Source: an uncultured Bacteroidales bacterium (GTDB lineage Bacteria > Bacteroidota > Bacteroidia > Bacteroidales > Bacteroidaceae). From it: 57,716 nt of DNA. The stretch spans positions 1 to 57,716 of the forward strand of contig CACWTR010000031.1 of NCBI GenBank assembly GCA_902763865.1, written 5' to 3'. Made by a program: the position numbers and the translations under genes. Positions 12,608-52,183 of this stretch are shown here, piece after piece. The notes beneath the pieces were generated by a model that made no database searches, was not told the origin of the DNA, and worked only from the letters and a program-made list of their open reading frames with translations. Numbering within the stretch: the stretch's first letter is position 1; each line of letters opens with the position of its first letter.

Positions 12608-12768
12608 AAACGTCGTGTTGCAAAACAAAGCATGGATTTTGGCAAAAATCGCCTTGAAGCCACAACGAAAAGAACGCGTCGCGTTGGGCAAAACGTCGTG
12701 ACGTGTTGGCCAACACGACGTGAGCTTATTGGCATAGGCTCGCGTCGTGTCTTGCGATGCGACGTTTC
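12608..12768. repeat. Degenerate 21-23 bp palindrome array between malQ and mltG
   Basis: Cores of TTGG or TTGC flanked by inverted GTG/CAC or CGT/ACG arms recur at 12618, 12639, 12684, 12706, 12729 and 12752, i.e. at steps of 21-23 bp with one step skipped. The best unit is a perfect 16-bp palindrome, CGTGTTGGCCAACACG, at 12702-12717. The two flanking genes converge here. The remaining part of this 367-bp gap (12425-12607) shows nothing I recognise apart from a short CGGGTGGCACTTTCGTGCCCCG hairpin-like stretch near 12500. Confidence 0.6.
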
Positions 12769-12791
12769 AAGAGAGATAATGATGTAAAGAT

Positions 12792-13799
12792 TTATCTGAT
12801 GCCGCGTGCATTGAGGGCACGGACGTATCGTCGGGCATTGCGATAGTGCTCTTGGAGAGTCTTGGCGAAGTTGTGGGTGCCGGAGAAGTCCTCCTTCGCA
12901 CACATATATATATATGGGTGTTCTACGTGATTGAGGACGGCATCCAGCCCGGCGATGCTTGCAATGCGGATGGGGCCTGGGGGCAGACCCGGGACAAGGT
13001 AGGTGTTGTAAGGGCTCTCGGTCTTGAGGTGTTTGTTCAGGATGCGCCGCAGGGCAAAGTCGCCGACGGCATACTTCACGGTCGGGTCGGCCTGCAGGGG
13101 AATTCCGAGTCGCAGACGGTTGAGGTAGAGGCCGGCTATCATGGGCTTCTCTGTGTCGTTGGCCGTCTCTTCATCGACGATGCTTGCCAGTGTAGCTACT
13201 TCCTCGTGCGTCAGTGCACAGGCTTGTGCCTTTGCCTTGCGGTCGGCAGTCCAGAAACGCTTGTTTTCGCGCTCCATACGCCCGATGAACCCGTCAAGGG
13301 AGACATCCCAATAGACCTCGTAGGTGTTGGGGATGAAAAGAGCCGGAATGGTAGCCGTCGTGTATCCGTGAGCGGCGCAGTACGTGCTGTCCGTCAGTGC
13401 CGAGGCTATCTCAGTGGAGTCCATCATGAGGCTCTGCGAGAGCACGGCTGCAAGCCGGTCCATCGTGCGGGCCGTGGGAATGACGAGTCGGATGGGCTCC
13501 TGAATGCCGTTGCGCAGCTGGCGGTACAGTTCCAGGCACGACATGCCCGCATCAACGCGGTAACGTCCTGTGCGTATTCGGTACTTGAGCAACCGTCCAT
13601 AGACATCCCATCGCCAGCCGAGTTCAGACTTTGCGCGGACGCTGTCGGGCGTGTCGTCGCGGTCAATGTATATCAGCCGGCCTTCTCCGTCGTCTGCAGC
13701 CACCCGTGCAGTCGTCAAGGTGAGAACGCCGAGGACCGACAGACCAATCATCAGTATGACGGCAACAAGAACCGTCCAAAATGTCTTTCTGTTCATCAT
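12792..13799 (-). CDS. mltG: Endolytic murein transglycosylase MltG
   Basis: Cleaves nascent glycan strands at the inner membrane and ends peptidoglycan chain growth. One N-terminal membrane anchor (FWTVLVAVILMIGLSVLGVL) precedes a YceG domain with the catalytic glutamate in ASIVDEETAND and the block PLQADPTVKYA. The open frame extends to 13847, but the TAnnTTTG promoter at 13820-13827 lies inside that extension, so translation should begin at the ATG at 13799 or the adjacent one at 13796. That gives about 335 residues, normal for the family. Confidence 0.93.
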   Translation of the reverse strand: MMNRKTFWTVLVAVILMIGLSVLGVLTLTTARVAADDGEGRLIYIDRDDTPDSVRAKSELGWRWDVYGRLLKYRIRTGRYRVDAGMSCLELYRQLRNGIQEPIRLVIPTARTMDRLAAVLSQSLMMDSTEIASALTDSTYCAAHGYTTATIPALFIPNTYEVYWDVSLDGFIGRMERENKRFWTADRKAKAQACALTHEEVATLASIVDEETANDTEKPMIAGLYLNRLRLGIPLQADPTVKYAVGDFALRRILNKHLKTESPYNTYLVPGLPPGPIRIASIAGLDAVLNHVEHPYIYMCAKEDFSGTHNFAKTLQEHYRNARRYVRALNARGIR

Positions 13800-13819
13800 T
13801 AGCAATGCTTTAACGGGTG

Positions 13820-13827
13820 CAAAAGTA
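13820..13827 (-). promoter_or_regulatory. -7 promoter element of mltG
   Basis: TACTTTTG on the minus strand, about 20 bp before ATG 13799. It decides the start of mltG, because a longer reading would place the promoter inside the gene. Confidence 0.75.
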
Positions 13828-13889
13828 CATAAATTCGCCCTAAACACAAAATTTTTCCCTTTTCACTTTCAGCTTTTCACATTTTGTTG

Positions 13890-13897
13890 TATCTTTG
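13890..13897 (+). promoter_or_regulatory. -7 promoter element of tRNA-Thr
   Basis: TATCTTTG, a consensus match, ends 12 bp before the first base of the tRNA, giving a very short 5' leader. Confidence 0.75.
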
Positions 13898-13909
13898 CAC
13901 CCGCAAACC

Positions 13910-13982
<73 letters not shown>

Positions 13983-13995
13983 CAGTTGATGCAGA

Positions 13996-14034
13996 AGAGA
14001 GAGTTCCTTGGATGGAGCTCTCTCTTGTTGTTTT
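13996..14034 (+). terminator. Terminator after tRNA-Thr
   Basis: A 12-bp stem (AGAGAGAGTTCC with GGAGCTCTCTCT, one T-G wobble) with a 6-base loop, followed by TTGTTGTTTT. Confidence 0.8.
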
Positions 14035-14142
14035 AGCGAGTTGGGGCATTCTGCGGGAGCTGTAGTCTGTTAAATAATCATAAAAAACTCGCCTGCGCGA
14101 TATAATATAATGTATAGGCTTGTTCAATTCGAAGATTTGTTG

Positions 14143-14150
14143 TAACTTTG
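14143..14150 (+). promoter_or_regulatory. -7 promoter element of rpsA
   Basis: TAACTTTG, 61 bp before the rpsA start. The leader between them is AT-rich and lacks a Shine-Dalgarno sequence. Confidence 0.75.
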
Positions 14151-14211
14151 CAGCGCCTTATGAAGGCATGCGATTATTAACTATAATTTATTAACTCTTT
14201 AATTAATCTGT

Positions 14212-16065
14212 ATGGCAGATTTCAAGAATGTTGCTCCCCTCGAAGACTTCAACTGGGAGGCTTACGAAAAGGGCGACAGCAACACCAACGAGAGCCGTGA
14301 GGCTCAGACAGAGGCCTACGAAGGTTCTCTGAACAAGGTAAGTGACCACGACGTAGTTGACGGAACCGTCATCTCGATGAATAAGCGCGAGGTGGTGGTC
14401 AACATCGGCTTCAAGAGCGATGGTATCATACCTATGAGTGAATTCCGCTACAATCCCGACCTGAAGGTGGGCGATACTGTAGAGGTTTACATCGAAAATC
14501 AAGAAGACAAGAAGGGTCAGCTCATTCTTTCTCACAAGAAGGCACGTGCTTCCCGCTCTTGGGACCGTGTGAACGAAGCCCTGAACAATGACGAAATCAT
14601 CAAGGGCTATGTCAAGTGCCGCACTAAGGGCGGTATGATTGTAGATGTCTTCGGCATCGAAGCATTCCTGCCCGGCAGCCAGATTGACGTCAAGCCCATC
14701 CGCGACTACGATATCTTCGTTGGCAAGACGATGGAGTTCAAGGTTGTCAAGATCAACCAGGACTATCGCAATGTCGTTGTCAGCCACAAGGCTCTCATCG
14801 AGGCAGAGCTCGAGGCTCAGAAGAAGGAAATCATCAGCAAGCTCGAGAAGGGTCAGGTGCTCGAAGGCACCGTCAAGAACATCACTAACTATGGCGTGTT
14901 CATCGACCTGGGCGGCGTAGATGGTCTCATCCACATCACCGACCTGAGCTGGGGCCGCGTCAGCGACCCGAAGGAGGTTGTCGAACTCGACCAGAAGATC
15001 AATGTCGTTATCCTCGACTTCGACGACGAGAAGAAGCGCATCTCCCTCGGCCTGAAGCAGCTCACTCCGCATCCTTGGGATGCCCTCGACCCCAACCTGA
15101 AGGTGGGCGACCACGTGAAGGGCAAGGTTGTCGTGATGGCCGACTACGGTGCATTCATCGAGATAGCTCCCGGCGTGGAAGGTCTTATCCACGTCAGCGA
15201 GATGTCCTGGAGCCAGCACCTGCGCAGCGCTCAGGACTTCATGAAGGTGGGCGACGAGGTGGAAGCCGTCATCCTCACCCTCGACCGCGAGGAGCGCAAG
15301 ATGTCGCTCGGCATCAAGCAGCTTAAGGAAGATCCCTGGGAGAACATCGAAGAGCGCTATCCCATTGGCAGCAAGCACATTGCCAAGGTACGCAACTTCA
15401 CCAACTTCGGCATCTTCGTCGAGATTGAGGAAGGCGTGGATGGCCTCATTCACATCAGCGACCTCAGCTGGACCAAGAAGATCAAGCACCCCAACGAGTT
15501 CACACAGATTGGTGCCGAGATTGAGGTATGCGTGCTCGAGATTGACAAGGCAAACCGCCGTCTCTCCCTCGGCCACAAGCAGCTCGAGGAGAATCCTTGG
15601 GATGTCTTCGAGACAGTCTTCACCGTTGACAGCATTCACGAAGGCACTATCGTCGAGATGCTCGACAAGGGTGCAGTCGTACAGCTCGAGTACGGCGTGG
15701 AAGGCTTTGCCACTCCCCGTCACCTCGTCAAGGAGGATGGCACTCAGGCTCAGAAGGGCGAGAAGTTGCAGTTCAAGGTGATTGAGTTCAACAAGGAGAG
15801 CAAGCGCATCATCGTCTCTCACAGCCGCATCTTCGAGGACGTGCAGCGTGCCGAAGCCCGCGAGGCCAAGAAATCTACCCGCAAGGCATCTGCCGCCAAG
15901 GAAGAGGCACCGTTGGTTCAGAACCAGGCTGCCAGCACCACTCTCGGTGACTTCGATGCTCTGGCAGAGCTGAAGGCCAAGATGAAGGCCGGTGAGAAGG
16001 CCGCAGAACCCGTGGCAGAACCCAAGGCTGAGGCAGAACCCGTAGCCGAACCGAAAGCAGAATAA
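14212..16065 (+). CDS. rpsA: 30S ribosomal protein S1
   Basis: Binds mRNA on the small subunit and helps initiation, which matters in Bacteroidetes where Shine-Dalgarno pairing is rarely used. Six S1 repeats can be followed: about residues 48-110, 128-194, 213-283, 298-370, 385-457 and 472-543. Repeats 3-5 share the GVFIDLGGVDGLIH type core. The 617-residue length fits a six-repeat S1 with an added tail, which is rich in lysine, alanine and glutamate and ends in EPVAEPKAE repeats. Monocistronic, between its own promoter and terminator. Confidence 0.97.
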   Translation: MADFKNVAPLEDFNWEAYEKGDSNTNESREAQTEAYEGSLNKVSDHDVVDGTVISMNKREVVVNIGFKSDGIIPMSEFRYNPDLKVGDTVEVYIENQEDKKGQLILSHKKARASRSWDRVNEALNNDEIIKGYVKCRTKGGMIVDVFGIEAFLPGSQIDVKPIRDYDIFVGKTMEFKVVKINQDYRNVVVSHKALIEAELEAQKKEIISKLEKGQVLEGTVKNITNYGVFIDLGGVDGLIHITDLSWGRVSDPKEVVELDQKINVVILDFDDEKKRISLGLKQLTPHPWDALDPNLKVGDHVKGKVVVMADYGAFIEIAPGVEGLIHVSEMSWSQHLRSAQDFMKVGDEVEAVILTLDREERKMSLGIKQLKEDPWENIEERYPIGSKHIAKVRNFTNFGIFVEIEEGVDGLIHISDLSWTKKIKHPNEFTQIGAEIEVCVLEIDKANRRLSLGHKQLEENPWDVFETVFTVDSIHEGTIVEMLDKGAVVQLEYGVEGFATPRHLVKEDGTQAQKGEKLQFKVIEFNKESKRIIVSHSRIFEDVQRAEAREAKKSTRKASAAKEEAPLVQNQAASTTLGDFDALAELKAKMKAGEKAAEPVAEPKAEAEPVAEPKAE

Positions 16066-16090
16066 CCGTTTTTTTGTGATACTTAGTTGA

Positions 16091-16126
16091 AAGGCCCCGT
16101 CCCCTTTGTGGGGCGAGGCCTTTTGT
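16091..16126 (+). terminator. rpsA terminator
   Basis: AAGGCC and GGCCTT close a stem that continues through CCCC/GGGG pairs, followed by TTTTG. It lies between rpsA and the start of rnz, so rnz either depends on read-through or has an unrecognised start site. Confidence 0.85.
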
Positions 16127-16140
16127 ATTTCATACTGGCT

Positions 16141-17055
16141 TTGAACTTTGAACTGAACATACTCGGATGTGGCTCGGCCAAGCCCTCTACCCGTCACCAG
16201 CCGTCGGCGCAGATACTGAACGTGCGAGGCAAGTACTTCCTCATCGACTGTGGCGAAGGGGCACAAACCCAGATGCAGCTGATGGGGCTCTCAATGGCGA
16301 ACATTGGCCACGTCTTCATCAGCCACAATCACGGCGACCATGTCTTCGGACTGCCCGGACTCATCGGAACGATGGACCTGTTGGGCCGCACAGCCGAACT
16401 GCACGTCCACGGACCGCAGCAGATTGGCGAGCTGCTCGACTTCCTGGTCCGTACCTATTACGCCGATATCCGCTATCCGCTTCTCTTCCATCCTGTTGAC
16501 ACCCGCCGCCATGAACTTATCTACGAGGACCGCAGCATCACGGTTCACAGCATTCCCCTGGAGCACCGCATCCCGTCGGTTGGCTACCTCTTCAGGGAAA
16601 AGCCTCGCCTGCCGCACATCAGGCGGGAAATGATTGAAGCCTACGGCATTCCCTTCAGCCAGATCAACAACATCAAGGCCGGAGCATCGTGGACGACAGA
16701 AGACGGAACCGTCATTCCCCACGAGCGGCTCACCTCGCCGGCCATGAAGCCACGCTCCTACGCCTATTGTTCCGACACGGTCTATCTGCCAGAGCTAAAG
16801 GATATTATCGAAGGCGTCACACTGCTCTACCACGAAGCCACCTACATGCATGAACGTGCACTCCGCGCAGAGCAGACCCGTCACACCACAGCCATCCAAG
16901 CCGCCACCCTTGCCCGCGACGCAAGGGTAGGGCGCCTGTGTATCGGACATTTCAGCGCAGCCATCAAGGACGAGGATGCCTTGCTCCGCGAGGCTCAAAG
17001 TGTCTTTCCCGATACCGTCCTCGCCAAGGAAGGACTTGTCATCGACATCAAGTAG
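16141..17055 (+). CDS. rnz: Ribonuclease Z
   Basis: A tRNA 3'-end endonuclease of the metallo-beta-lactamase fold. The metal motif SHNHGDHVFGLPG gives H62, H64, D66 and H67. No ATG exists near the conserved N-terminus. The TTG at 16141 gives MNFELNILGCGSA, which aligns with the usual family start and yields 304 residues. An earlier TTG at 16087 would place the rpsA terminator inside the coding region and is unlikely. No TAnnTTTG element is seen after the terminator. Confidence 0.92.
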   Translation: MNFELNILGCGSAKPSTRHQPSAQILNVRGKYFLIDCGEGAQTQMQLMGLSMANIGHVFISHNHGDHVFGLPGLIGTMDLLGRTAELHVHGPQQIGELLDFLVRTYYADIRYPLLFHPVDTRRHELIYEDRSITVHSIPLEHRIPSVGYLFREKPRLPHIRREMIEAYGIPFSQINNIKAGASWTTEDGTVIPHERLTSPAMKPRSYAYCSDTVYLPELKDIIEGVTLLYHEATYMHERALRAEQTRHTTAIQAATLARDARVGRLCIGHFSAAIKDEDALLREAQSVFPDTVLAKEGLVIDIK

Positions 17056-17138
17056 AATCCATAGCCTCGCGCAAAAGTATTACTGACACTTCGGTAAAAT
17101 CTTATCGAGGTGCAATAAAAGCCATCTTGACGTGTGGC

Positions 17139-17232
17139 AAAACTATTTTCACGTCATGAAAATCTTTTTTCACGTCATGAAAATAGATTTTCAAAGCTTG
17201 AAAATTAATTTTCACGTCGTGAAAATAGTTTT
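17139..17232. repeat. Array of four 19-bp palindromes, exact 21-bp period
   Basis: Units start at 17145, 17166, 17187 and 17208. Each is ATTTTCAn-nnn-nTGAAAAT-like, with 7-8 bp arms; unit 4 is ATTTTCAC-GTC-GTGAAAAT. Units are joined by 2-bp linkers (CT, AG, TA). The whole array is closed by AAAACT on the left and AGTTTT on the right, an outer inverted repeat. It lies in the 325-bp gap between rnz and the DUF308 gene. The same design is found at 35721-35815. Confidence 0.9.
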
Positions 17233-17380
17233 ATCACGTGTTGTCCGGGAGTTTATTACTGTTGGGACAGTATTTTGTCTCTTTCATCCAGTTTTTTTCC
17301 ATCAGGTATTTGTCCGTACAATAAACATGTGTCATTCTTCGTTATAAAAAGTGTAACTAACTTCTAAACCTATTATTTAT

Positions 17381-17923
17381 ATGAAAAACAGTACAAAATT
17401 CTGGATGTGCTTTGCGGGTACAGCACTCGTGGCACTTGGTGTGCTTTGCATTGTAAAGCCTGACATTACTCTTATCAGTGCCGCATGGGTTCTGGGATGT
17501 CTCACACTTTTTGCAGGCATATCGAAACTTATCTTTACGTTTCAGACACAAGCCTTCATGCCGAACAGTGGAACTCGTATGCTCAGTGCATTGCTCGACA
17601 TTTTCTTCGGTTGCTTTTTCCTGTTCAACATTCTTGGCACAGCCGTTTCCCTGCCTGTCGTGTTTGCCATCTGGGTGCTTGTTGAAGGCTTGGTAATTGC
17701 CGTGCAAAGCTTTGACTATAAGTCTGTAGGGTTCCAATACTGGTGGGTCGTGCTGATACTGGGCATCTGCGGTGCCATACTTGGTGTCCTCGGCCTGAAG
17801 AACCTGGACGTTACAGCCCTTACGCTTTCTACTATCATCGGATGCGCCATCATTGCAAACGGCCTGGCTTACTTCTGCGCACTGCTGGGCATAAAACGTT
17901 TCGAAGAGTTTATCGAAGACTAA
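17381..17923 (+). CDS. DUF308 (HdeD-like) membrane protein
   Basis: A 180-residue integral membrane protein with about six hydrophobic segments and the repeated pattern ALGVLCIVKPDITL...GVLGLKNLDVTALT typical of DUF308. HdeD, the best-known member, is linked to acid resistance in enteric bacteria; that role cannot be carried over here. It stands alone between a palindrome array and a strong terminator. I see no TAnnTTTG element directly upstream. Confidence 0.85.
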   Translation: MKNSTKFWMCFAGTALVALGVLCIVKPDITLISAAWVLGCLTLFAGISKLIFTFQTQAFMPNSGTRMLSALLDIFFGCFFLFNILGTAVSLPVVFAIWVLVEGLVIAVQSFDYKSVGFQYWWVVLILGICGAILGVLGLKNLDVTALTLSTIIGCAIIANGLAYFCALLGIKRFEEFIED

Positions 17924-17953
17924 CAATCAGTACTTGTCAACGGATACGAGAAA

Positions 17954-17990
17954 GGGGCTGTGTCAAATTGAATGACACAGCCCCTATTAT
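17954..17990. terminator. Terminator between DUF308 and lipid kinase genes
   Basis: A perfect 12-bp stem, GGGGCTGTGTCA with TGACACAGCCCC, around a 7-base loop. It lies between two converging genes and may serve both. Confidence 0.8.
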
Positions 17991-18039
17991 AGCATTAACT
18001 ACGAACTTCACCAGTTAGACGAGTTTATAGCAGCCTAAG

Positions 18040-19092
18040 CTATTTACTTCTGAGCTTGCGCAGGAGTTCCTTGTTGATGGTGCTGATGCGGCGCTGGCTT
18101 TCTCGGAAGTCGGCGCGGATGTCGGCTCCCAAGGTGGAAATCTCCTCGTTGACACCGTGATAGAAATCAGTGAAGGAGCGGAGTAGGGGAGGGAGATAGG
18201 GCTGCTCGCGCGTGCTGACCACCATGCGGATGCCTTTCGGTACGAGCCGGACATCCAAGTCCACGCCGGCCTCCTTGGGGTCGCCGTCGAAATGGATAAC
18301 GCCCGGAGCAGAGCGCCTGATGTGAAGATGCTTGCAACGGAAGGAACGGATTCGGCTGTTGCTCGTAATCGTCTTGTTGAAAAGCTGAATAGCAATCTGC
18401 GGAGCCTCAAGGACGGTGAACGGCTCCATCAGCGTCACGTCCATCAAGCCGTCGCTCATACTGGCGTGGGGCGCAATAAAGACGTTGTTGCCGTACTGAC
18501 TGGCATTGGCACAGGCAATGAGGAATGCCTGATAGACCTGCTTCTCGCCGTCGATGGTTATCTCGTAGGTGTCGGGTTTGTACTTCAAGCCTTCCTTCAG
18601 CGTGTTTTCGATGTAGGTGAGCAGTCCGCGGCGGCCTGCCTTGGCAAAGCGGTCACTGATAAAAGCATCGAAGCCTACGCCGCAAGTGCAGAAGAATGGT
18701 TCCTGGTCGATCATGCCATAGTCGAGGAGCTCGATGTGGCACTCGGCTATGACCTGGAGAGCACCTTCAGCATTCATTGGTATATAGAGGTGTCGCGCCA
18801 GTCCGTTGCCGCTGCCGCAGGGTATGATGCCGAGGGCCGTGTCGGTATGGATGAGTCGCCGGGCCACCTCGTTGACAGTGCCGTCGCCGCCTACTGCCAC
18901 GACAACTTCCGCGCCCTCCCTGACAGCCTGGTCAGTAAACTCGGCTGCATGTCCTTTGCGCTCCGTCCAGCGAATGGAACAGTCAAAGCGATGACCGTCC
19001 AGAAACTCCGGAATGAGGTCGATGATTTGGCTCTTGTCCGACGTACCCGAAATGGGGTTTACAATGAATACTATCTTTGTCTTTTTATCCAT
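18040..19092 (-). CDS. Diacylglycerol kinase family lipid kinase
   Basis: A 350-residue member of the DagK/sphingosine kinase/YegS family. The motif VNPISGTSDKSQ is near the N-terminus, the nucleotide block VVAVGGDGTVNEVARRLI is at about residues 64-82, and IIPCGSGNGLARHL follows. These enzymes phosphorylate a membrane lipid hydroxyl with ATP. Its divergent neighbour is serine palmitoyltransferase, so a sphingoid base or ceramide is a plausible substrate, but this is inference. The -7 element lies only 11 bp before the ATG, so the mRNA should be nearly leaderless. Confidence 0.88.
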   Translation of the reverse strand: MDKKTKIVFIVNPISGTSDKSQIIDLIPEFLDGHRFDCSIRWTERKGHAAEFTDQAVREGAEVVVAVGGDGTVNEVARRLIHTDTALGIIPCGSGNGLARHLYIPMNAEGALQVIAECHIELLDYGMIDQEPFFCTCGVGFDAFISDRFAKAGRRGLLTYIENTLKEGLKYKPDTYEITIDGEKQVYQAFLIACANASQYGNNVFIAPHASMSDGLMDVTLMEPFTVLEAPQIAIQLFNKTITSNSRIRSFRCKHLHIRRSAPGVIHFDGDPKEAGVDLDVRLVPKGIRMVVSTREQPYLPPLLRSFTDFYHGVNEEISTLGADIRADFRESQRRISTINKELLRKLRSK

Positions 19093-27635: not shown

Positions 27636-27701
27636 TTGCTTCATCGCGATGAAGCAATTGCTTGTTCGCGATGAAGCAATTGCTCCATCGCGATGGAGCA
27701 A
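27636..27701. repeat. Three tandem 22-bp palindromes upstream of ftsK
   Basis: Units 27636-27657, 27658-27679 and 27680-27701 abut without spacers. Units 1 and 3 are perfect 22-bp palindromes (arms TTGCTTCATCG and TTGCTCCATCG); unit 2 has three changed bases in its left arm. In unit 3 both arms changed together, so the symmetry is conserved rather than the sequence. About 150 bp follow before the ftsK promoter with nothing else recognised. Confidence 0.92.
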
Positions 27702-27894: not shown

Positions 27895-30426
27895 ATGGAC
27901 GCAAAGAAAAGCGCAAGACAACATAAGCCCGCAGGCAAGGCGAGCAGGAAGCACAAGACGGCGAAGCCCCAGCCATTGTGGATTCGCACGCTGAACTGGT
28001 TCCGCTCGAACATCGGCGACAAGGAAGACGTCGATCCGGAGAAGCGGGGCGAGCACAGCGACAACCTGCGCTTCGTCTGGGGGGCTGTGCTGGCTACGTT
28101 CTCGCTGGCCATTCTCATTGCCCTCATCTCCCACGTCTTTACGGGCCGCGACGACTGGAAATGCGTCAACAGCGACTCCTACACCGCTGCCAACTGGCTT
28201 GGGCTGTGGGGCTACCACGTGGCACACTGGCTGATGGACAACACGTTTGGCGTGTCAAGCATCTTGATTCCCGTGCTGATGCTGGCAACGAGCATCCGCA
28301 TCATGGGACTGGCTAAAGTGCGGCTTCATCTGTGGTTCATCAACTGCATGATTATCATGGCTTGGGCTTCTGCCTTTGCAGCCTACATCGTCCGCATCAT
28401 CCCGAGTGCACAGGACACCTATATCATGTGGGGCGGCATGATAGGCAGCAACGAGCTGAATTTCCTCATGGAGAAGGTCGGAGGCCTCGGGACCCTGCTC
28501 ATCTTCATCCTTTCCGCCCTACTCTACCTGTTCTACCTCAGCGACGAAGCAATCACCTGGCTCAGGCACAAGTTCATTCGCAACCGCCCCACCCCGCCTT
28601 CCATCGAAGAAAAGGCAGACGAGGGCGAGGACGACAGCCAGGTAGAATACCCGCTGATGCCCGACAGCGAGGACGAGGAAGACGACGAGGAAGAGCCCAA
28701 AGTGCCCTTCTCCGACGAAGCTTCGACAACAGCCACCACCATCGAGTTCGACGAGGACCCCCTGGCCCCCCTCAAGGGAATCAAGAGCGACAGCGGGCAA
28801 GGTTCTGTACCTCAGAACGGTATGGATGACGGACAAGATGACATAACGGTCGTCATCGGAAAAGAACCCGAGAAGGCTTCGCTCACGGAAGGCCGGGCCC
28901 TGGAACCCTACGACCCGAAGCTCGACCTGGAGAACTACAAGTACCCCACCATCGACCTGCTCAAGCACTACGACGACACCTCGAGCGACATCGACATGGA
29001 GGAACAGCGCAACAACAAAGAACGCATCAAGACCGTTCTGCGCAACTTCCGCGTGGAAATCATGCCCAACACGAAGGCAACCATCGGTCCCACCATCACG
29101 CTCTACGAGATAACCCCGGCTCCGGGCATACGTATCAGCACCATCCGCAACCTGGAGGACGATATAGCCCTGAGCCTAAGTGCCCTCGGCATCCGCATCA
29201 TTGCCCCCATACCCGGCAAGGGAACCATCGGCATTGAAGTGCCGAATGCAAAGCCCCAGATGGTTTCGATGGAAAGCATTCTGAACAGTCGCAAGTTCCA
29301 GGAGACGGACTACGAACTGCCAATGGCACTCGGCAAGACCATCACCAACGAAGTTTTCATAGCCGACCTCACGAAGATGCCGCACCTCCTCGTTGCTGGT
29401 GCTACGGGACAAGGCAAGTCCGTCGGACTGAACGCCATCATCACCTCTCTGCTCTACAAGAAGCATCCCGCCGAGCTGAAACTCGTCATGGTCGATCCCA
29501 AGAAAGTGGAGTTCAACCTCTACAGCCCCATCGTCAACCACTTCCTTGCTCAGGTGGAGGGCAACGAGGACGTCGAGGAACCAATCATCACCGATGTCAA
29601 CAAGGTCATACAGACGCTCAAGAGCCTCTGCCTCGAGATGGACAACCGCTACGACCTGCTGAAGAAAGCCCACGCCAAGAACGTCAAGGAATACAACCAG
29701 AAGTTCCGCGCCCGTCAGCTCAATCCGAACAATGGTCACCGGTACATGCCCTACATCGTTGTCGTCATCGACGAGTTTGGCGACCTCATCATGACAGCCG
29801 GCAAGGAAATCGAGCTCCCCATCGCCCGCATCGCACAGCTGGCACGAGCCGTAGGCATCCACATGATCATCGCCACCCAGCGCCCCACAACTAACATCAT
29901 CACCGGCACCATCAAGGCCAACTTCCCTGCACGCATGGCATTCAAGGTGACGACAGGCGTCGATAGCAAGACCATTCTGGACCGTACCGGAGCAAATCAG
30001 CTTGTCGGCAAAGGAGACATGCTCCTGATGAACGGCACTGAGCCCGTCCGCATCCAGTGTGCCTTTGTTGATACTCCCGAGGTGGAGGCCGTCGTGCACC
30101 ACATTGCCTGCCAGCAAAGCTATCCCTCGCCCTATCTCCTCCCCGAAGTGCCGATGGAGGGCGAAGAGGACGGCGGCCTGAACGATGTCGATCTGACACA
30201 TCTCGACCCGATGTTCGAAGATGCCGCACGCATGATAGTCAGCGAGCAGAACGGCAGTACGAGCATGATACAGCGCAAGTTCAGCATCGGCTACAACCGA
30301 GCAGGTCGCCTAATGGACCAGCTCGAGAAAGCCGGCGTGGTTGGACCCGCCAAGGGAAGCAAGCCGCGCGAAGTGCTCTGCGTCAGCGAAGAACAGCTCA
30401 TGATGATAATGGACAATTTGCGGTGA
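27895..30426 (+). CDS. ftsK: DNA translocase FtsK
   Basis: Septal ATP-driven DNA pump for chromosome segregation, about 843 residues from ATG 27895. The start is chosen because the promoter is at 27856-27863. Four or five hydrophobic segments occupy about residues 55-220, followed by an acidic linker (EEKADEGEDDSQ, SEDEEDDEEEP). The motor has Walker A GATGQGKS at residues 502-509 and Walker B VVVIDEFGDLI near 620, with IATQRPTTNIITG after it. The C-terminal gamma winged helix (IQRKFSIGYNRAGRLMDQLE) recognises orientation sequences. The linker contains a small LAPLKGI hairpin piece. lolA follows. Confidence 0.96.
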   Translation: MDAKKSARQHKPAGKASRKHKTAKPQPLWIRTLNWFRSNIGDKEDVDPEKRGEHSDNLRFVWGAVLATFSLAILIALISHVFTGRDDWKCVNSDSYTAANWLGLWGYHVAHWLMDNTFGVSSILIPVLMLATSIRIMGLAKVRLHLWFINCMIIMAWASAFAAYIVRIIPSAQDTYIMWGGMIGSNELNFLMEKVGGLGTLLIFILSALLYLFYLSDEAITWLRHKFIRNRPTPPSIEEKADEGEDDSQVEYPLMPDSEDEEDDEEEPKVPFSDEASTTATTIEFDEDPLAPLKGIKSDSGQGSVPQNGMDDGQDDITVVIGKEPEKASLTEGRALEPYDPKLDLENYKYPTIDLLKHYDDTSSDIDMEEQRNNKERIKTVLRNFRVEIMPNTKATIGPTITLYEITPAPGIRISTIRNLEDDIALSLSALGIRIIAPIPGKGTIGIEVPNAKPQMVSMESILNSRKFQETDYELPMALGKTITNEVFIADLTKMPHLLVAGATGQGKSVGLNAIITSLLYKKHPAELKLVMVDPKKVEFNLYSPIVNHFLAQVEGNEDVEEPIITDVNKVIQTLKSLCLEMDNRYDLLKKAHAKNVKEYNQKFRARQLNPNNGHRYMPYIVVVIDEFGDLIMTAGKEIELPIARIAQLARAVGIHMIIATQRPTTNIITGTIKANFPARMAFKVTTGVDSKTILDRTGANQLVGKGDMLLMNGTEPVRIQCAFVDTPEVEAVVHHIACQQSYPSPYLLPEVPMEGEEDGGLNDVDLTHLDPMFEDAARMIVSEQNGSTSMIQRKFSIGYNRAGRLMDQLEKAGVVGPAKGSKPREVLCVSEEQLMMIMDNLR

Positions 30427-30429
30427 GAG

Positions 30430-30500
30430 TTTAGAGACGAGTGTTCAGAGTTTAGAGACAGGAATTTAGAGTTTAGAAACAAGAGTTTAGAGTCAAGAAA
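30430..30500. repeat. Low-complexity word repeat between ftsK and lolA
   Basis: The words GAGTTTAGAGA, TTAGAGTTTAGA and GAGTTTAGAG recur irregularly across the gap. A similar TTTAGAGTTTA stretch lies at 33643-33685 before the ABC transporter gene. Confidence 0.6.
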
Positions 30501-35657: not shown

Positions 35658-35720
35658 AGCCCCCCGCCTACATGCCATAACCCTTATCGCGCAGATATAA
35701 AATCCCGAACTCCGCGTCAT

Positions 35721-35815
35721 AAAAACTATTTTCATGGTTTGAAAATCAATTTTCAAACCATGAAAATTAATTTTCACGTCATGAAAATAGATTTTCACGA
35801 CGTGAAAATAGTTTT
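35721..35815. repeat. Second array of four 19-bp palindromes, exact 21-bp period
   Basis: Units start at 35728, 35749, 35770 and 35791, with 2-bp linkers CA, TA and AG and outer ends AAAACT and AGTTTT, exactly as at 17139-17232. Units 1 and 2 are reverse complements of each other (ATTTTCATGGTTTGAAAAT and its complement). Unit 4 is ATTTTCAC-GAC-GTGAAAAT. The array lies between the Gate-domain gene and the valS promoter. Confidence 0.92.
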
Positions 35816-35894
35816 GTGTCGCGTCGGTTGGAATTTTGCACCCAATCTTCAGAAATTTATGAATTGCAGATTATGAATTATAAATTAAAAGTTG

Positions 35895-38722: not shown

Positions 38723-40155
38723 ATGAAAAGAGACTGTACAGACAAGCAGGAACTGACAAGACGTGAGTTTCTGGAACGATTAGGATTAGGTTCAGCAACG
38801 GCACTGTCGCTGATAACAATGGGGTCGTTGCAAGCAAGGGCTCTTTCTAACTCCCACTTAAATGGGGAGACCCCCTTCCCTTTACGGGAGGGCCGGGGAG
38901 GGTCTGCGGGCTTGGGAGGGCCTGAAGGCCGGGAAGGGTCCATGACCTATCGTACCCAGAACGGAACCGGCGAGAAGATATCCCTGCTGGGCTTTGGCAT
39001 GATGCGACTGCCGCGCGAGCAGGAAAAGGTGAACGAACTGGTCGATTACGCACTGGCTCACGGCATCAACTACTTCGACACTGCTCCCATGTACGGCGGC
39101 GGGCAGAACGAGACGGCAACAGGACTGGCCCTGAGCCGTCATCCACGCGACAAGTATTACGTCGCCACGAAGATGTCCAATCAGAACGAAAGCCTGTGGC
39201 CCTTCGAGAAATCGAAAGAGATGTACGAGAATTCGTTCCGCAAGCTGCAAGTCGATTACATCGACTATTACCTGCTCCACAGCGTCGGAGGCGGCGGGCT
39301 TGATAATCTCAGGGGCCGCTTCATCGACAACGGCCTGCTCGACTTCCTCCTCGAAGAGCACAAGGCAGGACGCATCCGTCACCTCGGCTTCAGCTACCAC
39401 GGAGATGTAAGGTGTTCGACTGGCTGCTCGACAACAACGACAAGTACCATTGGGACTTCGTGCAGATACAGATGAACTATCTCGACTGGAACCATGCACA
39501 GAAGCGGGGAGGCAGACGTCGCGGCGATGCCAATGCCGAATACCTATACGGAAGGCTGGAGAAGCTGGGCATACAGTGCGTCATCATGGAACCCCTCCGA
39601 GGCGGTGCGCTTTCCGACGTCACGGACGACATACGCCAGCAGATGGCACGTGCCCGCAAGGACGACACTCCTGCGCGATGGGCTTTCCGTTGGGTCGGTT
39701 CCCATCCCGACGTGCTGACAGCCCTGAGCGGCATGAACCGCATGGAGCACCTCAAGGAGAATCTGGAAACCTTCTCGCCCCTGGAGCCTTGCACCACGGT
39801 AGAAAACGAGTTGCTGGCACGCATCGCCGACAAGATGTCGGGACTTCCCACCATAGGCTGTACCACCTGCGCCTACTGTATGCCCTGCAAGTACGGAGTG
39901 GATATCCCTGGTAACTTTGCATTCTACAACAAGGCCGTCTCCGAAGGCCGTCTGCCCCTGCCAGACAGCTCGGCACCCGACTTCGATGAGAAGCGAGTAG
40001 CCTATCTCGAATCCTATCGCGCCGCCATACCTGCTGCGGCAAGGGCCAACAAATGTCAGGACTGCGGCGAATGCCTGACCAAGTGCCCGCAGCAACTGCC
40101 CATCCCCACGAACATGAGCAGACTCGTGGAGATGACAAGAAAGAAAAGGGATTAG
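38723..40155 (+). pseudogene. Tat-exported aldo/keto reductase with 4Fe-4S domain, frameshifted
   Basis: Two frames together form one protein. Frame 1 (38723 to about 39411) encodes a twin-arginine leader (LTRREFLERLGLGSATALSL) and the reductase barrel up to RHLGFSYHGDV. Frame 2 resumes with VFDWLLDNNDKYHWDFVQIQ at 39412 and ends with two ferredoxin-like clusters (CTTCAYCMPC and CQDCGECLTKCP). One base is missing near 39408-39411 (GTAAGGTG, where GTAAAGGTG would keep the frame). It may be a real mutation, a slip site or a sequencing error. The leader also carries a hairpin-rich insertion (38849-38941). Intact relatives are cofactor-binding oxidoreductases exported folded to the periplasm. Confidence 0.85.
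38849..38941. repeat. Hairpin-rich insertion at the leader of the aldo/keto reductase
   Basis: Several small palindromes follow each other (CTCCCACTTAAATGGGGAG, CCCTTTACGGG, GGCCTGAAGGCC). They encode a Gly/Pro/Arg-rich stretch between the Tat leader and the MTYRTQNGTGEKISLLG start of the barrel. Confidence 0.55.
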
Positions 40156-40229
40156 AGATTAACAGATTAGGGATTAGAGATTAACAGATTAGGGATTAGA
40201 GATTAACAGATTGGGGATTAGAGATTAAT
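40149..40229 (+). repeat. Tandem 22-bp repeat between reductase and FMN-binding genes
   Basis: Three and a half copies of a 22-bp unit made of ATTAGAGATT, AACAGATTAG and GG follow each other with one base change in copy 3. Copy 1 supplies the stop codon of the reductase gene, and the last partial copy contains ATG 40228, a possible start of the next gene. Confidence 0.9.
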
Positions 40230-46658: not shown

Positions 46659-46723
46659 TTGTTTCCCGCGTGAAACAAACTGTTTCCTCGCGTGGAAACA
46701 AATTGTTTCGCACGGGAAACAAA
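46659..46723. repeat. Three tandem palindromes with ~22-bp period
   Basis: Units have arms TTGTTTC/GAAACAA (46659-46678), TGTTTCC/GGAAACA (46681-46700) and TTGTTTC/GAAACAA (about 46703-46722), with CG-rich loops that vary (CCGCGT, TCGCGT, GCACGG). In unit 2 both arms changed together. The array lies between the nucleoside hydrolase and the DUF3791 cassette, behind the 3' end of the latter. Confidence 0.85.
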
Positions 46724-47177: not shown

Positions 47178-47264
47178 CAATAAATTTTTTTCAATTAACG
47201 ATAAAGTTTGCAGAGAATAACGTGATTTTGGATGCATATTAGGACATTCTTGCGAATTTCTTCG

Positions 47265-47272: not shown

Positions 47273-47280
47273 CAGCCGCT

Positions 47281-48630: not shown

Positions 48631-48962
48631 AACTCCATATCCAGGCTGATGGGGGCTTCCGGGTCCGGACGGCTTTCCGACTCGCCCTGCTCGTTGGCAA
48701 CAAAGCCGAAAGCCTCCTGCAATGCCTCACGGAACTTGGCAAAGTCTTCGCGGAAAAGGAATATCTTGTGCTTCTCGAAGCTCACCTGCGGCATCTCGGA
48801 CGTGCCGTTCAGCATCTTCTTGCTCTCGGTGATGCTGAGGTACATCTCGCCACGACGGTTCTGCTTCACGTCGATGTAATAAATACGTTGTCCCGCCTTA
48901 ACGGACCTTGAAAACAGGATTTCAGCATCCCGCCCTTCTGTAGTCTTCTTGTCTGTCTCCAT
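48627..48962 (-). CDS. PUR family DNA/RNA-binding protein (DUF3276)
   Basis: A 111-residue single-PUR-repeat protein: EILFSRSVKAGQRIYYIDVKQNRRGEMYLSITESKK followed by FLFREDFAKFREALQEAF. Such proteins dimerise and bind single-stranded nucleic acid, as shown for the Borrelia PUR protein; the Bacteroidetes role is not defined. It is convergent with the MATE gene. Confidence 0.9.
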   Translation of the reverse strand: METDKKTTEGRDAEILFSRSVKAGQRIYYIDVKQNRRGEMYLSITESKKMLNGTSEMPQVSFEKHKIFLFREDFAKFREALQEAFGFVANEQGESESRPDPEAPISLDMEF

Positions 48963-49059
48963 TGTACAATGATTTCTCTTTGCTCTGCAAATTTCTTCAT
49001 ATTTCTGCTAACTGCCAAAAAAAGATGAAGGAAAATGCAGCTTTTTGCTCTAAAATAAC

Positions 49060-49067
49060 TAATTTTG
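49060..49067 (+). promoter_or_regulatory. -7 promoter element of the nusB operon
   Basis: TAATTTTG, 26 bp before the nusB start. Confidence 0.68.
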
Positions 49068-49093
49068 CAGTCCCTATTAGTTAAAAGTGCTCT

Positions 49094-50023
49094 ATGATAA
49101 ACCGTGAACTGATACGATTGAAGCTCGTACAGGTGCTCTACTCCTACCTCCAGAAGGGCATCTACAGACCCGATGTTGCAGAAAAAGAACTCCTGCTGAG
49201 CCTGGACAAAGCATACGACCTCTACAACTACATGCTACTGCTGATGGTGGAGATAGGTCGCATGTCCGTCCGGATGCTGGAAATGCGCGAAAGCAGGAGC
49301 AAAAAGCTGAACGACGGAGTGAAATGGAGTCATAAGTTTGCCGACAATCGCTTCATCCTGCAGCTGGAATCGAACCGGCAGCTCCGCAAGTATTGCGACG
49401 AACAAGCCCTCAGCTGGGCAGACCAGGAAGATTTCGTGCGCGCATTATATAATAATGTAGAGCAGAGCGAGTGGTACCAGCAGTATATGTCCTCCGGCAA
49501 TGACACCTACGAAGAGGACCGCGAAATATGGCGACTCATCTACCGCCACCTCATCGCCGGCAACGAAGAGCTCGAAGCCCTGCTCGAAGACAACAACGTC
49601 TATTGGAACGACGACAAGGCAATCGTGGATTCCTTCGTGCTGAAGACAATCAACCGCTTCAACGAAGCAAGCACCGCAGCCGAACCGCTCCTGCCCGAAT
49701 ACAAGAGCCAGGAAGACCGCGACTTTGCCACGAAGCTCCTGCAACGTGCCCTCAACGGACAGGAATACTACTACAGCCTCATCAACGCCACTACGCGCAA
49801 ATGGGAATTTGGACGCATCGCCCTGATGGACCGCATCATCCTGCAACTCGGACTGGCTGAAATCACCACGTTCCCGAACATACCCATCAGCGTCAGCATC
49901 AACGAATACGTCGATATCGCCAAGTTCTACAGCACCCCCAAAAGCGGGAAATACATCAACGCCACCCTCGACGGAATAGCCAAGAAACTAATCGAAGAAG
50001 GGAAACTCGTCAAGGAAAGCTAA
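49094..50023 (+). CDS. nusB: Transcription antitermination protein NusB
   Basis: A 309-residue NusB. The C-terminal ~130 residues are the classical domain (DRDFATKLLQRALNGQEYYYSLINATTRKWEFGRIALMDRIILQLGLAEI...ISVSINEYVDIAKFYSTPKSGKYINATLDGIAKKL), preceded by the long helical N-terminal region usual in Bacteroidetes. It binds boxA RNA with S10 in rRNA antitermination. First gene of nusB-yajC-ybbR-coaE-DUF5606. Confidence 0.94.
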   Translation: MINRELIRLKLVQVLYSYLQKGIYRPDVAEKELLLSLDKAYDLYNYMLLLMVEIGRMSVRMLEMRESRSKKLNDGVKWSHKFADNRFILQLESNRQLRKYCDEQALSWADQEDFVRALYNNVEQSEWYQQYMSSGNDTYEEDREIWRLIYRHLIAGNEELEALLEDNNVYWNDDKAIVDSFVLKTINRFNEASTAAEPLLPEYKSQEDRDFATKLLQRALNGQEYYYSLINATTRKWEFGRIALMDRIILQLGLAEITTFPNIPISVSINEYVDIAKFYSTPKSGKYINATLDGIAKKLIEEGKLVKES

Positions 50024-50065
50024 GCCGCAAGACCAAAATAATAATAACACAAATACACAAACACT

Positions 50066-50368
50066 ATGTTAACTCTACTACAAGCACAGGGAGCAGGCGG
50101 AAACATGTCGTTTCTCATCATGATGGTTCTCATCTTTGCCATCATGTGGTTCTTCATGATCCGCCCTCAGCAGAAGAAACAGAAGGAAATACAAAACTTC
50201 CGCAACAACATCACCCGCGGACAGCAAATCGTCACGGCTGGCGGCATCTACGGCACAGTCAAGGACATTGACGAAGCCAACAACACACTCAAGGTGGAAA
50301 TCGCCAACGGCATCTGCATCAAGGTAGATCGCGGCAGCGTCTTCGCATCAGCTCAACCCGTGCAATAA
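50066..50368 (+). CDS. yajC: Preprotein translocase subunit YajC
   Basis: A 100-residue protein with one membrane helix (MSFLIMMVLIFAIMWFFMIRPQQKKQKE) and the conserved cytoplasmic segment GQQIVTAGGIYGTVKDID. It joins SecDF at the Sec translocon. It lies 42 bp after nusB. Confidence 0.95.
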   Translation: MLTLLQAQGAGGNMSFLIMMVLIFAIMWFFMIRPQQKKQKEIQNFRNNITRGQQIVTAGGIYGTVKDIDEANNTLKVEIANGICIKVDRGSVFASAQPVQ

Positions 50369-50386
50369 AAGAACGGCAATCGGACA

Positions 50387-51430
50387 ATGTCGGTGAGCAA
50401 ACGTGCCAACAATCAATGGAAGGACCGGCTGTTCGGGCCGAAAAGCCACGAACTGCTCGTCTTCTGCTTTTTCCTCGCCGTTTCCTTCGGATTTTGGCTC
50501 CTGCAGGCACTGAACGAAACAATGGAAAGCGAGACGCAAGTCAGCATCAGCCTCGACAACGTCCCCGCCAACGTGGTCATCATCGATTCGCTCCCGTCCG
50601 TCCTCAACGTCACCCTGCACGACCGGGGACTGGCCCTTGCACGCAACAGCTTCTCCAGCCTGTTCCGTCCCAGCCACCTGAGCATAGACTTCAGCAAGTA
50701 CGACGCGGGGAAGAGTGAGACCGAAGTCTATATCCCAGCATCCGACATGCAACGAATGCTGGGACACCTCTTCATGGCATCGACCAAGATTCAGTCCTTC
50801 CGCCCCGACACGCTCCGCTTCTCCTACAATCACGGACTCTCGCGCATGCTCCCCGTCAGGCTGGCTGGCTCCCTCAAGCCAACAACCCAGAACTACATTC
50901 AGGGCATCCGCATAGAGCCCGATTCCGTCCGCGTCTTCGCACCGGCTGCAATGCTCGACACGATGCAGGCAGCCTATTCCGAGGCATTCCTCTTCGAAGG
51001 GCTTAATGCTTCGGGAAACTACCAGGCAGGACTGCGCAAGCAGAAATTCCTGAAATACGAACCCGAACAAGTCAGCATCAACGTCAGCGTAGGCTACTAC
51101 ACGGAAAAGACCGTCAGGGTACCTGTCCTCGGACTGAACTTCCCCGCAGAGAAAAAGCTGCGGACCTTCCCGGCTGAAGTCTCTGTCACCTTTCGCGTTG
51201 AGTCCGGACGCTACCAGCAAACCACAGCCGACGACTTCGTACTCGCCACGACTTACGAAGAACTCCTGGACTTCACCGAAGGCAGCAAACTCCTCCTGCA
51301 CCTGAAGACCATTCCGGAAGGAGTCTCGGACGTAAGAATAACCCCCAAGGAGGTTGACTACCTCATCGAACAAGTCGGTACGTCCGCATTCACCCTGACC
51401 GAAGAAGGCAAAGGAAATCCGGGGCAATAA
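50387..51430 (+). CDS. YbbR-like protein
   Basis: A 347-residue protein with an N-terminal membrane segment (ELLVFCFFLAVSFGFWLLQAL) and YbbR-type beta-rich repeats outside (VPANVVIIDSLPSVLNVTLHDRG; PVRLAGSLKPTTQNYIQGIRIEPDSVRVFAP; VRVPVLGLNFPAEKKLRTFPAEVSVTF). YbbR proteins in Firmicutes affect diadenylate cyclase, which is not nearby here. In Bacteroidetes the gene belongs to the nusB-yajC-coaE cluster, as here. Confidence 0.85.
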   Translation: MSVSKRANNQWKDRLFGPKSHELLVFCFFLAVSFGFWLLQALNETMESETQVSISLDNVPANVVIIDSLPSVLNVTLHDRGLALARNSFSSLFRPSHLSIDFSKYDAGKSETEVYIPASDMQRMLGHLFMASTKIQSFRPDTLRFSYNHGLSRMLPVRLAGSLKPTTQNYIQGIRIEPDSVRVFAPAAMLDTMQAAYSEAFLFEGLNASGNYQAGLRKQKFLKYEPEQVSINVSVGYYTEKTVRVPVLGLNFPAEKKLRTFPAEVSVTFRVESGRYQQTTADDFVLATTYEELLDFTEGSKLLLHLKTIPEGVSDVRITPKEVDYLIEQVGTSAFTLTEEGKGNPGQ

Positions 51431-51477
51431 TTGACTTCACGAATCATGCTCAGACAATTCTGAACGACAGCAGCAAA

Positions 51478-52086
51478 ATGGACAGCAGGATGGTATCTAT
51501 CGGCATCACTGGCGGCATAGGCAGCGGCAAGAGCTACGTATCGGGACTTCTCCGACGCCATTTTGACATTCCCGTCTATGACTGCGACAAGGAAGCCAAA
51601 CGCCTGACGGCAACCAGCCCGGAGATACGCTGCGGCCTTGTCCGCCTGACAGGGCCGGAAGTGTTCACCGGTGATGAGCTCAACCGCAAATACCTTGCCG
51701 ACTATCTCTTTGCCGACCCGGAACACGCAAGCAAAGTCAATGCAATCATCCACCCTGCCGTCTTGAAGGACTTCAGACTTTGGACAGAAAGACAGCAGAA
51801 GCCGGTTGTAGGCATAGAGAGCGCCATTCTCTACGAAAGCGGATTTGACCAGCAGGTCGATTACGTCCTCTTCGTCGATGCCCCTGAGGAAGTCCGCCTG
51901 TGCAGGGCTGTCAAGCGTGACAATGCATCGGAAGAACAAATCCGTGCAAGGATGAAGATGCAACAGCCCGAGCTGCACCGCAGTCAGGCAGACTTCTGCA
52001 TAGAGAACAGCACAGACGACGACACAAAATTACTGACACAACTAACGGAAATCCTCAACAGATTAACTAATTCATGTTTCAGATGA
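51478..52086 (+). CDS. coaE: Dephospho-CoA kinase
   Basis: Phosphorylates dephospho-CoA to coenzyme A. The 202-residue protein has the P-loop GGIGSGKS at residues 12-19, DCDKEAKRL and IESAILYESGFDQQVDYVLFVDAPEE as family blocks. ATG 51478 is used; ATG 51490 (MVSIGITGG) is an alternative start. The first enzymes for the pathway's cysteine steps, coaBC, lie elsewhere in the window at 23.5 kb. Confidence 0.93.
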   Translation: MDSRMVSIGITGGIGSGKSYVSGLLRRHFDIPVYDCDKEAKRLTATSPEIRCGLVRLTGPEVFTGDELNRKYLADYLFADPEHASKVNAIIHPAVLKDFRLWTERQQKPVVGIESAILYESGFDQQVDYVLFVDAPEEVRLCRAVKRDNASEEQIRARMKMQQPELHRSQADFCIENSTDDDTKLLTQLTEILNRLTNSCFR

Positions 52087-52113
52087 TGCGTAAGTAAGGC
52101 TGTGCCAACGATG

Positions 52114-52183
52114 CCAGTACCACCGTGAGAAAACTCCAGTACCACCGCTGGAAAACTCCAGTACCACTGCGATGGTACTGGAG
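52114..52183. repeat. 22-bp tandem repeat ending in a palindrome
   Basis: Two direct copies of a 22-bp unit (CCAGTACCACCG...GAAAACT; 52114-52135 and 52136-52157) are followed by a third unit whose flanks form an 11-bp inverted repeat, CTCCAGTACCA with TGGTACTGGAG. Between units, CTGGA/TCCAG arms form shorter hairpins. It lies in the 167-bp gap between coaE and the DUF5606 gene. Confidence 0.85.

What the first reader, a model, noticed from the sequence alone, without database searches (positions are those of the whole stretch)
12608..52183. A class of intergenic arrays: tandem 19-22 bp palindromes with a two-helical-turn period, different sequence at most loci
Five clear loci (17139-17232, 27636-27701, 35721-35815, 46659-46723, 52114-52183) and one degenerate locus (12608-12768) share one design: three or more small palindromes in tandem, repeat period 21-23 bp, always between genes, never inside. 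The sequences of most loci are unrelated, and within loci base changes occur in both arms together, so symmetry and spacing seem conserved rather than sequence. This is not a CRISPR array (no unique spacers), not a REP/BIME family (no common sequence) and not a plain terminator (no T-run). Possible roles are multi-dimer protein binding on one DNA face, tandem RNA hairpins protecting or processing transcript ends, or products of a palindrome-copying activity. I know of no named family with this behaviour, but cannot exclude earlier description.
Basis: partly seen in the sequence, partly recalled or inferred. Interest (0 to 1): 0.85.

Follow-up and report, generated by a model that had tools for sequence, protein, structure and literature searches.

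The report
Phased palindrome arrays between operons
The spaces between genes in this bacterium and its sampled relatives hold short arrays of DNA palindromes spaced two helix turns apart; the spacing stays the same from species to species while the letters change, which suggests a protein-binding scaffold of a kind I did not find described.

Summary
Intergenic tandem arrays of period 21-22 bp number 35 in 432 kb of this genome, against 0.06 in shuffles. They occur in 13 of 14 sampled same-genus genomes, with different sequences. Dyad symmetry is significant in 24 of 33 own and 18 of 34 relatives' arrays.

Not all loci are singletons: families A (17139, 35721) and B (27636) are dispersed. Family A has at least 50 copies. 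Of 15 copies found without using a four-unit pattern, 13 have exactly four 21-bp palindromes. Degenerate 22-bp units flank the core with the same profile on both sides (r = 0.96). The same core recurs in 12 of 13 loci read from another rumen MAG.

Arrays lie between the upstream stop and the downstream promoter-like site and favour convergent pairs. In 4 of 5 genomes compared, different loci match; the same site in other species mostly does not. Terminator, RNA-hairpin, gyrase-motif and RAYT/REP readings fit poorly.

Best reading: a DNA platform for helically phased protein dimers at operon borders, binder unknown. A REP-like mobile origin is the main rival.

The parts
17139..17232 (.). Family A module: AAAACTATTTT, four 21-bp palindromes (TTTTCA-5-TGAAAA), AAAATAGTTTT; between rnz and a DUF308/HdeD-like gene
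   Evidence: p 0.005; arm scores 12,12,12,12
17117..17138 (.). Left degenerate 22-bp outer unit of the same module (contains TTGACGTGTGGC); limits inferred from the family profile
   Evidence: sequence; profile of 50 copies
17233..17254 (.). Right degenerate 22-bp outer unit (ATCACGTGTTG); limits inferred
   Evidence: sequence; profile
35721..35815 (.). Family A module between a CD0519-like gene and valS, upstream of the valS promoter-like site; absent by eye from this site in four relatives with the same upstream gene
35699..35720 (.). Left outer unit (contains CTCCGCGTCAT); limits inferred
35816..35837 (.). Right outer unit (GTGTCGCGTCGG); limits inferred
27636..27701 (.). Family B array, three 22-bp palindromes TTGCTTCATCGCGATGAAGCAA, between the DUF3127 gene and ftsK; followed by AACACGACGCG
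   Evidence: (14 matches genome-wide, up to 3 mismatches)
46659..46723 (.). Family G array, about three 21-23 bp palindromes TTGTTTCC..GGAAACAA; no second copy seen in the 432 kb sample
52114..52183 (.). Family H tandem array, 22 bp, between coaE and the DUF5606 gene; dyad symmetry not significant; by eye a related array lies on the other side of the same gene in G005
12608..12768 (.). Degenerate palindrome-rich stretch resembling family C (TTGGCCAA alternating with CACGACGTG); no tandem period detected

Best explanation
The arrays are DNA-level binding platforms at the borders of transcription units. A dyad-symmetric DNA-binding protein, or a few related ones, would bind as side-by-side dimers on one face of the helix. 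The two-turn pitch (21-22 bp) and the dyads would be what is recognised; the letters would be free to change as long as binder and sites change together. Family A is the clearest case: a module of four 21-bp sites flanked by one degenerate 22-bp site on each side, about 130 bp, which could hold four to six dimers. It might insulate neighbouring operons, block read-through, or organise the nucleoid. Shown: period, symmetry, position between stop and promoter-like site, near-fixed unit number in family A, similarity across loci within a genome, turnover between species. Inferred: that a protein binds, that it is DNA rather than RNA that acts, and any cellular role.
For: Intergenic period peaks at 21-22 bp in 13 of 14 same-genus genomes although sequences differ. 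Dyad symmetry exceeds column-permuted arrays: Stouffer 20 in own (24 of 33 with p<0.05) and 11.7 in relatives (18 of 34). Of 39 tandem-oriented arrays, a TANNTTTG promoter-like site lies between array and downstream gene in 32 (12,522 bases scanned) and between upstream stop and array in 0 (5,015 bases); for family A alone 20 of 22 and 0 of 22. Family A: none of 52 inside a called gene; 13 of 15 copies found without a four-unit pattern have exactly four units and 58 of 59 of their units have perfect arms (which would miss arrays with arms scoring under 8-9 of 12), while flanks differ and 44 of 50 four-unit combinations are distinct; left and right flank profiles correlate at 0.956 over positions 8-29. 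A four-unit 21-bp core is present in 12 of 13 loci read from G087. Sense-strand G-T and A-C mismatches are about equal (38 vs 32).
Against: No binder was identified. Several families coexist in one genome, which needs several binders or a very tolerant one. Arrays at a given site come and go: 0 of 4 relatives with the same upstream gene have one upstream of valS; 6 of 19 relatives shown have one downstream of rnz and 9 of 22 downstream of the DUF5606 gene, mostly the closest ones. Placement near 3' ends and away from starts is also what harmless insertions would show. G004 has no array in 80 kb. The half-turn GC rhythm expected of a wrapped complex is absent. Seven arrays of period 20-23 in relatives and two in this genome fell in called genes. 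The gene caller, promoter and terminator scans are home-made.
Confidence: 0.5

Rival explanations
1. They are REP-like mobile palindromic repeats without a cellular role. A transposase or recombination process copies them into the spaces between genes, where they do least harm; each species has its own amplified families.
For: Many copies at unrelated places and species-specific families; absence upstream of valS in 4 relatives with the same upstream gene; convergent and 3'-end preference as reported for REPs (PMC3733652, passages); coexisting families in one genome.
Against: The one full-length Y1 transposase gene found is flanked by a different repeat family and its relatives, some of them fragments, match in only 28 of 139 genus genomes, while arrays are in 13 of 14 sampled. 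The 21-22 bp period across unrelated families is unexplained. Family A cores show almost no decayed copies in 432 kb (58 of 59 units perfect), yet their outer units differ, which simple recent copying does not predict; if the core alone moves into ready-made sites, this objection weakens.
Confidence: 0.32
2. They act in RNA: tandem hairpins that end or protect transcripts.
For: Closeness to upstream stop codons (median 82.5 bp own and 79 bp relatives in tandem pairs) and enrichment in convergent pairs.
Against: Terminator-like hairpins are equally common at 3' ends with an array (13 of 56) and without (43 of 198; reversed-sequence control 4 of 60), and where array and terminator both occur the terminator ends first in 12 of 13. 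Only 1 of 39 tandem arrays contains a terminator-like site, 12 of 39 have one between stop and array. No clear excess of G-T over A-C mismatches. 10 of 52 family A arrays are divergent, with a promoter-like site on both sides in 7 and on one side in 3. No Rfam family reaches its gathering score at the arrays examined.
Confidence: 0.08
3. They are strong gyrase (or other topoisomerase) sites that relieve torsion at operon ends, like BIME-2 in E. coli.
For: Length of the family A module (about 130 bp) and excess at convergent ends match the idea; the E. coli gyrase motif spans about 130 bp with 10.75-bp GC periodicity (PMC6379681, passages).
Against: GC power at the half period (10.5-11 bp) is not raised over column-permuted arrays: p<0.05 in 0 of 33 own and 4 of 34 relatives.
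Confidence: 0.07

Closest known systems
REP / BIME / REPIN repeats (GTAG and CGTC super-families)
   Same: Short intergenic palindromes, many copies, species-specific families, preference for convergent and 3' positions
   Different: No conserved one-ended unpaired tag in family A; head-to-tail arrays at a 21-22 bp pitch, a near-fixed four-unit module, no linked RAYT found. Dimer arrangement (HH/TT) was not assessed
PINSR, the 188-bp intergenic repeat of Prevotella intermedia (PMC4755523)
   Same: Lineage-specific, intergenic, 177 and 184 copies in two strains, Bacteroidota
   Different: Described as without terminal inverted repeats and not as palindrome arrays; its sequence was not compared here
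Plasmid iterons and ParR-type centromeres (recalled, no call)
   Same: Direct repeats about two or one helical turns apart that hold phased protein dimers
   Different: One locus per replicon; here many chromosomal loci with species-wide sequence turnover
E. coli gyrase sites / BIME-2
   Same: Intergenic, about 130 bp, linked to operon ends
   Different: No 10.5-11 bp GC rhythm in the arrays

Membership tests
REP (GTAG/CGTC) | Unpaired GTAG or CGTC motif at one end of the stem | tested here: not met
   50 family A copies: both ends carry the same degenerate profile; the best CGTC-like columns reach only 0.38-0.72 and occur on both sides. Not tested for families B-H
REP / REPIN | Dedicated RAYT gene flanked by the repeats | tested here: not met
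   One full-length Y1 gene found (plus one partial match), flanked on both sides by another repeat (CCCAGGGCATCGCCCTGGG); a family C array lies on one side only
REP / REPIN | Intergenic, mainly unidirectional and convergent spaces | tested here: met
   Convergent 16 of 34, tandem 39 of 163, divergent 8 of 71 spaces in own plus 13 relatives
CRISPR array | Unique spacers between repeats | tested here: not met
   207 family A units use 10 spacer types, strands pooled. cas genes not searched
Intrinsic terminator | GC stem followed by T-run | tested here: not met
   1 of 39 tandem arrays
Gyrase wrapping site | 10.75-bp GC periodicity in both arms | tested here: not met
   half period of each array
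Phased operator array | Dyads repeated at whole helical turns | tested here: met
Phased operator array | A protein that binds it | not testable with these tools
   needs EMSA, DNA pull-down or footprinting

The most novel reading that the evidence does not exclude
A new class of bacterial chromosomal element: operon-border scaffolds defined by dyad symmetry and a two-turn pitch. Their sequence is homogenised within each species and replaced between species, as if a fast-evolving binder and its many sites changed together, with a four-site module shared by several lineages.
Probability: 0.4. Interest if true: 0.9.

Novelty: new variant of a known kind. Interest (0 to 1): 0.75.

Why it matters
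If they are binding platforms, a genus of bacteria marks operon borders with a scaffold whose geometry is conserved while its sequence turns over species by species. That would be a bacterial parallel to satellite-like concerted evolution and would make binder-site co-evolution testable across the 139 genus genomes held. If they are mobile, they are a palindrome family without a linked RAYT and with an unexplained pitch.

Tried and rejected
RAYT link: the single full-length Y1 transposase gene found in this genome (motifs DHIH and YVSNQVEHH, resembling subclass 1.2 of PMC6006769 as seen in passages) is flanked by other repeats; rejected as the dedicated mobiliser.

Gyrase wrap: half-turn GC rhythm not found. 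Terminator substitution: equal terminator rates with and without arrays. RNA: no clear G-T bias and no Rfam family at its gathering score at the arrays (for the window, for seven loci; the sub-threshold hits that lie on arrays, best E 9e-5, are microRNA-precursor models, which I take to be generic hairpin matches). Arm covariation: weak. Phage carriage: 0 stretches in viral contigs for one two-junction family A pattern. G088 (UBA3734) as a near relative for empty-site comparison: too distant, listed pieces 64-97% identical and mostly short. Triplex repeats (PMC4666352, passages) looked unrelated.

Weak points: 48 of the 52 family A copies come from the list, whose pattern needs four units and whose display was capped, so the 50-of-52 figure is biased; the figure from whole stretches is 13 of 15 (leaving out one chance pair at L060:15904 and one copy cut by a contig start). 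The outer-unit profile uses the biased set. In G087 the automatic count gave 2 to 7 units because outer units pass its threshold; the four-unit core is my reading of those hits, and L319 gave none. G004 was left out of the placement counts because it had no arrays; low-complexity heptad-type repeats were dropped there. In other families the five rows of period 20-23 and two of period 42 were not examined for coding or symmetry. The kinship of G085-G089 was not told. Literature: 10 of 10 searches showed no description of such arrays; subscription papers and preprints were not covered.
Full report
What was checked. The window is contig C31 of a 2.91 Mb, 75-contig, 84% complete genome. Gene content (for example DUF5606/DUF6852, DUF3127 and a Bacteroidales-type 6S RNA) points to Bacteroidales; the genus is not known to me. 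I sampled 374 kb more of this genome in 20 stretches, stretches of four same-genus genomes plus other families, 400 kb from ten same-genus genomes and small samples from other families and four named MAGs.

The observation. Four of the five clear loci are tandem dyad arrays, one (52114) is tandem but not significantly palindromic, and the degenerate locus has palindromes but no detectable period. In the own sample plus window, 59 intergenic tandem arrays score 60 or more; 35 have period 21 or 22 and 6 period 42; 2 of period 20-23 lie in called genes. Fifty dinucleotide shuffles give 0.06 on average at period 20-23. In 14 same-genus relatives, 43 of 69 intergenic arrays have period 21 or 22, 7 of period 20-23 lie in called genes, and 13 of 14 genomes have at least one intergenic array of period 21 or 22; G004 has none in 80 kb. 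Some period-21 rows are heptad-type low-complexity repeats and were removed for later tests. In all 34 relatives' spaces then kept, lag 22 fits better than 21. In 186 kb from 17 genomes of other families there are five rows of period 20-23 and two of 42; I did not examine them further, and that sample is small.

Families, not singletons. Family A units (TGAAAATNNATTTTCA) occur 204 times in this genome and 0 times in the reversed-pattern control. A two-unit pattern is found in 0 of 60 other genomes, 36 of them same-genus; diverged relatives of the family would escape it. Family B has 14 matches. Family C (TTGGCCAA alternating with CTCRYGAG or CACGACGT) has 59 core matches in 6 of 21 sampled stretches, plus 7 of a variant in 2; family D has 7 matches in 2. 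Families G and H were seen only in the window within that sample. A GTDB-wide scan with a two-junction family A pattern gave 8 stretches: RUG12472 (2), RUI435 (1), RGIG7992 (3), UBA3734 (1), and one in Dokdonia that does not look like an array.

Family A anatomy. In whole stretches, not picked by a four-unit pattern, 432 kb hold 15 family A arrays: 13 with four units, one with two, one with five; 58 of their 59 units have perfect 12-base arms (arrays with arms under 8-9 of 12 would be missed). Across 50 four-unit copies, 44 combinations of inner 9-mers are distinct, drawn from 10 types with strands pooled. Read outwards from the core, both flanks show the same profile: TARYTTTT, then a GACGCGTTG-like stretch, then RRG and TTT 22 bp beyond the first TTT; left and right profiles correlate at 0.956 over positions 8-29 and conservation fades beyond. 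So the element is four 21-bp sites plus one degenerate 22-bp site on each side. In RGIG7992 (G087), 12 of 13 loci fetched keep a four-unit 21-bp core with different inner and outer sequences; the thirteenth (L319) showed no array. The four-unit count there is my reading, because the automatic count includes outer units. By eye the same design is in RUG12472 (L046; its other array L044 counts five), RUI435 (L045) and same-genus G076 (L185, with shorter arms).

Placement. Among spaces of 120 bp or more in this genome and 13 relatives, arrays occur in 16 of 34 convergent, 39 of 163 tandem and 8 of 71 divergent ones (Fisher convergent against divergent p = 1e-4, convergent against tandem p = 0.011). 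In tandem pairs the median distance is about 80 bp to the upstream stop and 218-237 bp to the downstream start. A promoter-like TANNTTTG lies between array and downstream gene in 32 of 39 and between stop and array in 0 of 39, with 12,522 and 5,015 bases scanned. For 52 family A arrays: 22 tandem, 16 convergent, 10 divergent, 4 at contig or call edges, none inside a called gene. Terminator-like hairpins are no rarer at 3' ends with arrays (13 of 56) than without (43 of 198) and end before the array in 12 of 13.

Turnover between species. Downstream of rnz, five of the eight closest relatives (G005, G008, G075, G034, G035) have arrays, each with another unit; G076, G012 and G023 have none; of all 19 relatives shown, 6 have one, the sixth being G024, read by eye. 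Downstream of the DUF5606 gene, seven of the eight closest relatives have arrays (G075, G035, G026 and G008 by Tandem Repeats Finder; G023, G012 and G005 by lag-22 scores of 22-25 of 33 and by eye), G076 does not, and the window genome does not either but has family H upstream; of all 22 relatives shown, 9 have one. Upstream of valS, 0 of 4 relatives with the same upstream gene have one, while G012, with another upstream neighbour, has a 22-bp array about 250 bp upstream. Upstream of the DUF5606 gene, no 22-bp array is seen in the 12 relatives read, though G032 has a period-43 repeat there. Comparing the two 3' sites, the same genome matches itself in 27, 29, 31 and 32 of 33 positions (G008, G024, G035, G075); G005 does not (21), and the window genome (19) has no array at one of the sites. 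The same site in different species mostly scores 18-25, shuffles 19.3-19.7 on average with a maximum of 22; exceptions are the pairs G023/G012 (30) and G075/G026 (28), and a 27 between the window genome and G008 that I ascribe to shared coding sequence.

Symmetry acts at the DNA level, as far as sequence can tell. Mismatched dyad positions on the sense strand are G-T 38 and A-C 32, no sign of RNA pairing. The GC rhythm expected for gyrase wrapping is absent. No Rfam family reaches its gathering score at the arrays examined.

Known kinds. REP-like repeats share placement and family structure (PMC3733652: abstract, passages and section 6 seen) but not the tag or the RAYT link. PINSR of Prevotella intermedia (PMC4755523: passages and section 3.4 seen) is the nearest intergenic repeat reported in this phylum among papers found; its sequence was not compared. 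PMC6379681, PMC6006769 and PMC4666352 were seen as passages, other papers only as listings. Ten searches found no account of such arrays.

Verdict. The class is real, present across the sampled genus and probably constrained in geometry. A phased DNA-binding platform at operon borders is the best reading at about 0.5; a REP-like mobile origin without function is the main rival at about 0.3, and the two are not exclusive.

Noticed in passing
L167:1290-2140 (G000:C4, around 17640-18092): A stand-alone 151-aa Y1 (HUH) transposase gene flanked on both sides by REP-like repeats (GCCCTGAAAGGGC, CCCAGGGCATCGCCCTGGG) that also occur elsewhere in the genome (5 pattern matches in 432 kb): a possible REPtron of a subclass reported to lack REPs.
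   Followed up: partly
window 9534-9702 (-): Rfam Bacteroidales-1 RNA (suggested 6S RNA), 131 bits.
   Followed up: no
window 40147-40228: A 22-bp tandem repeat (98% matches) built on GATTAGA-like heptads between two genes; also 30426-30493 (21 bp). Heptad-type repeats recur in this genome and some relatives and share the 21-22 bp length.
   Followed up: no
L185:14770-14989 (G076): Composite: about six 22-bp units run straight into a four-unit family A-like module, so families join in one stretch.
   Followed up: no
L320-L331 (G087): Most family A modules of this genome have a one-sided variant arm (GGTTAT or GATTAT for GAAAAT) in unit 2 or 3, giving the module a direction.
   Followed up: no
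L059:1298-1390: An 18-bp palindromic tandem array (ATCTAGATAGTCTAGAGT) that departs from the 21-22 bp rule.
   Followed up: no
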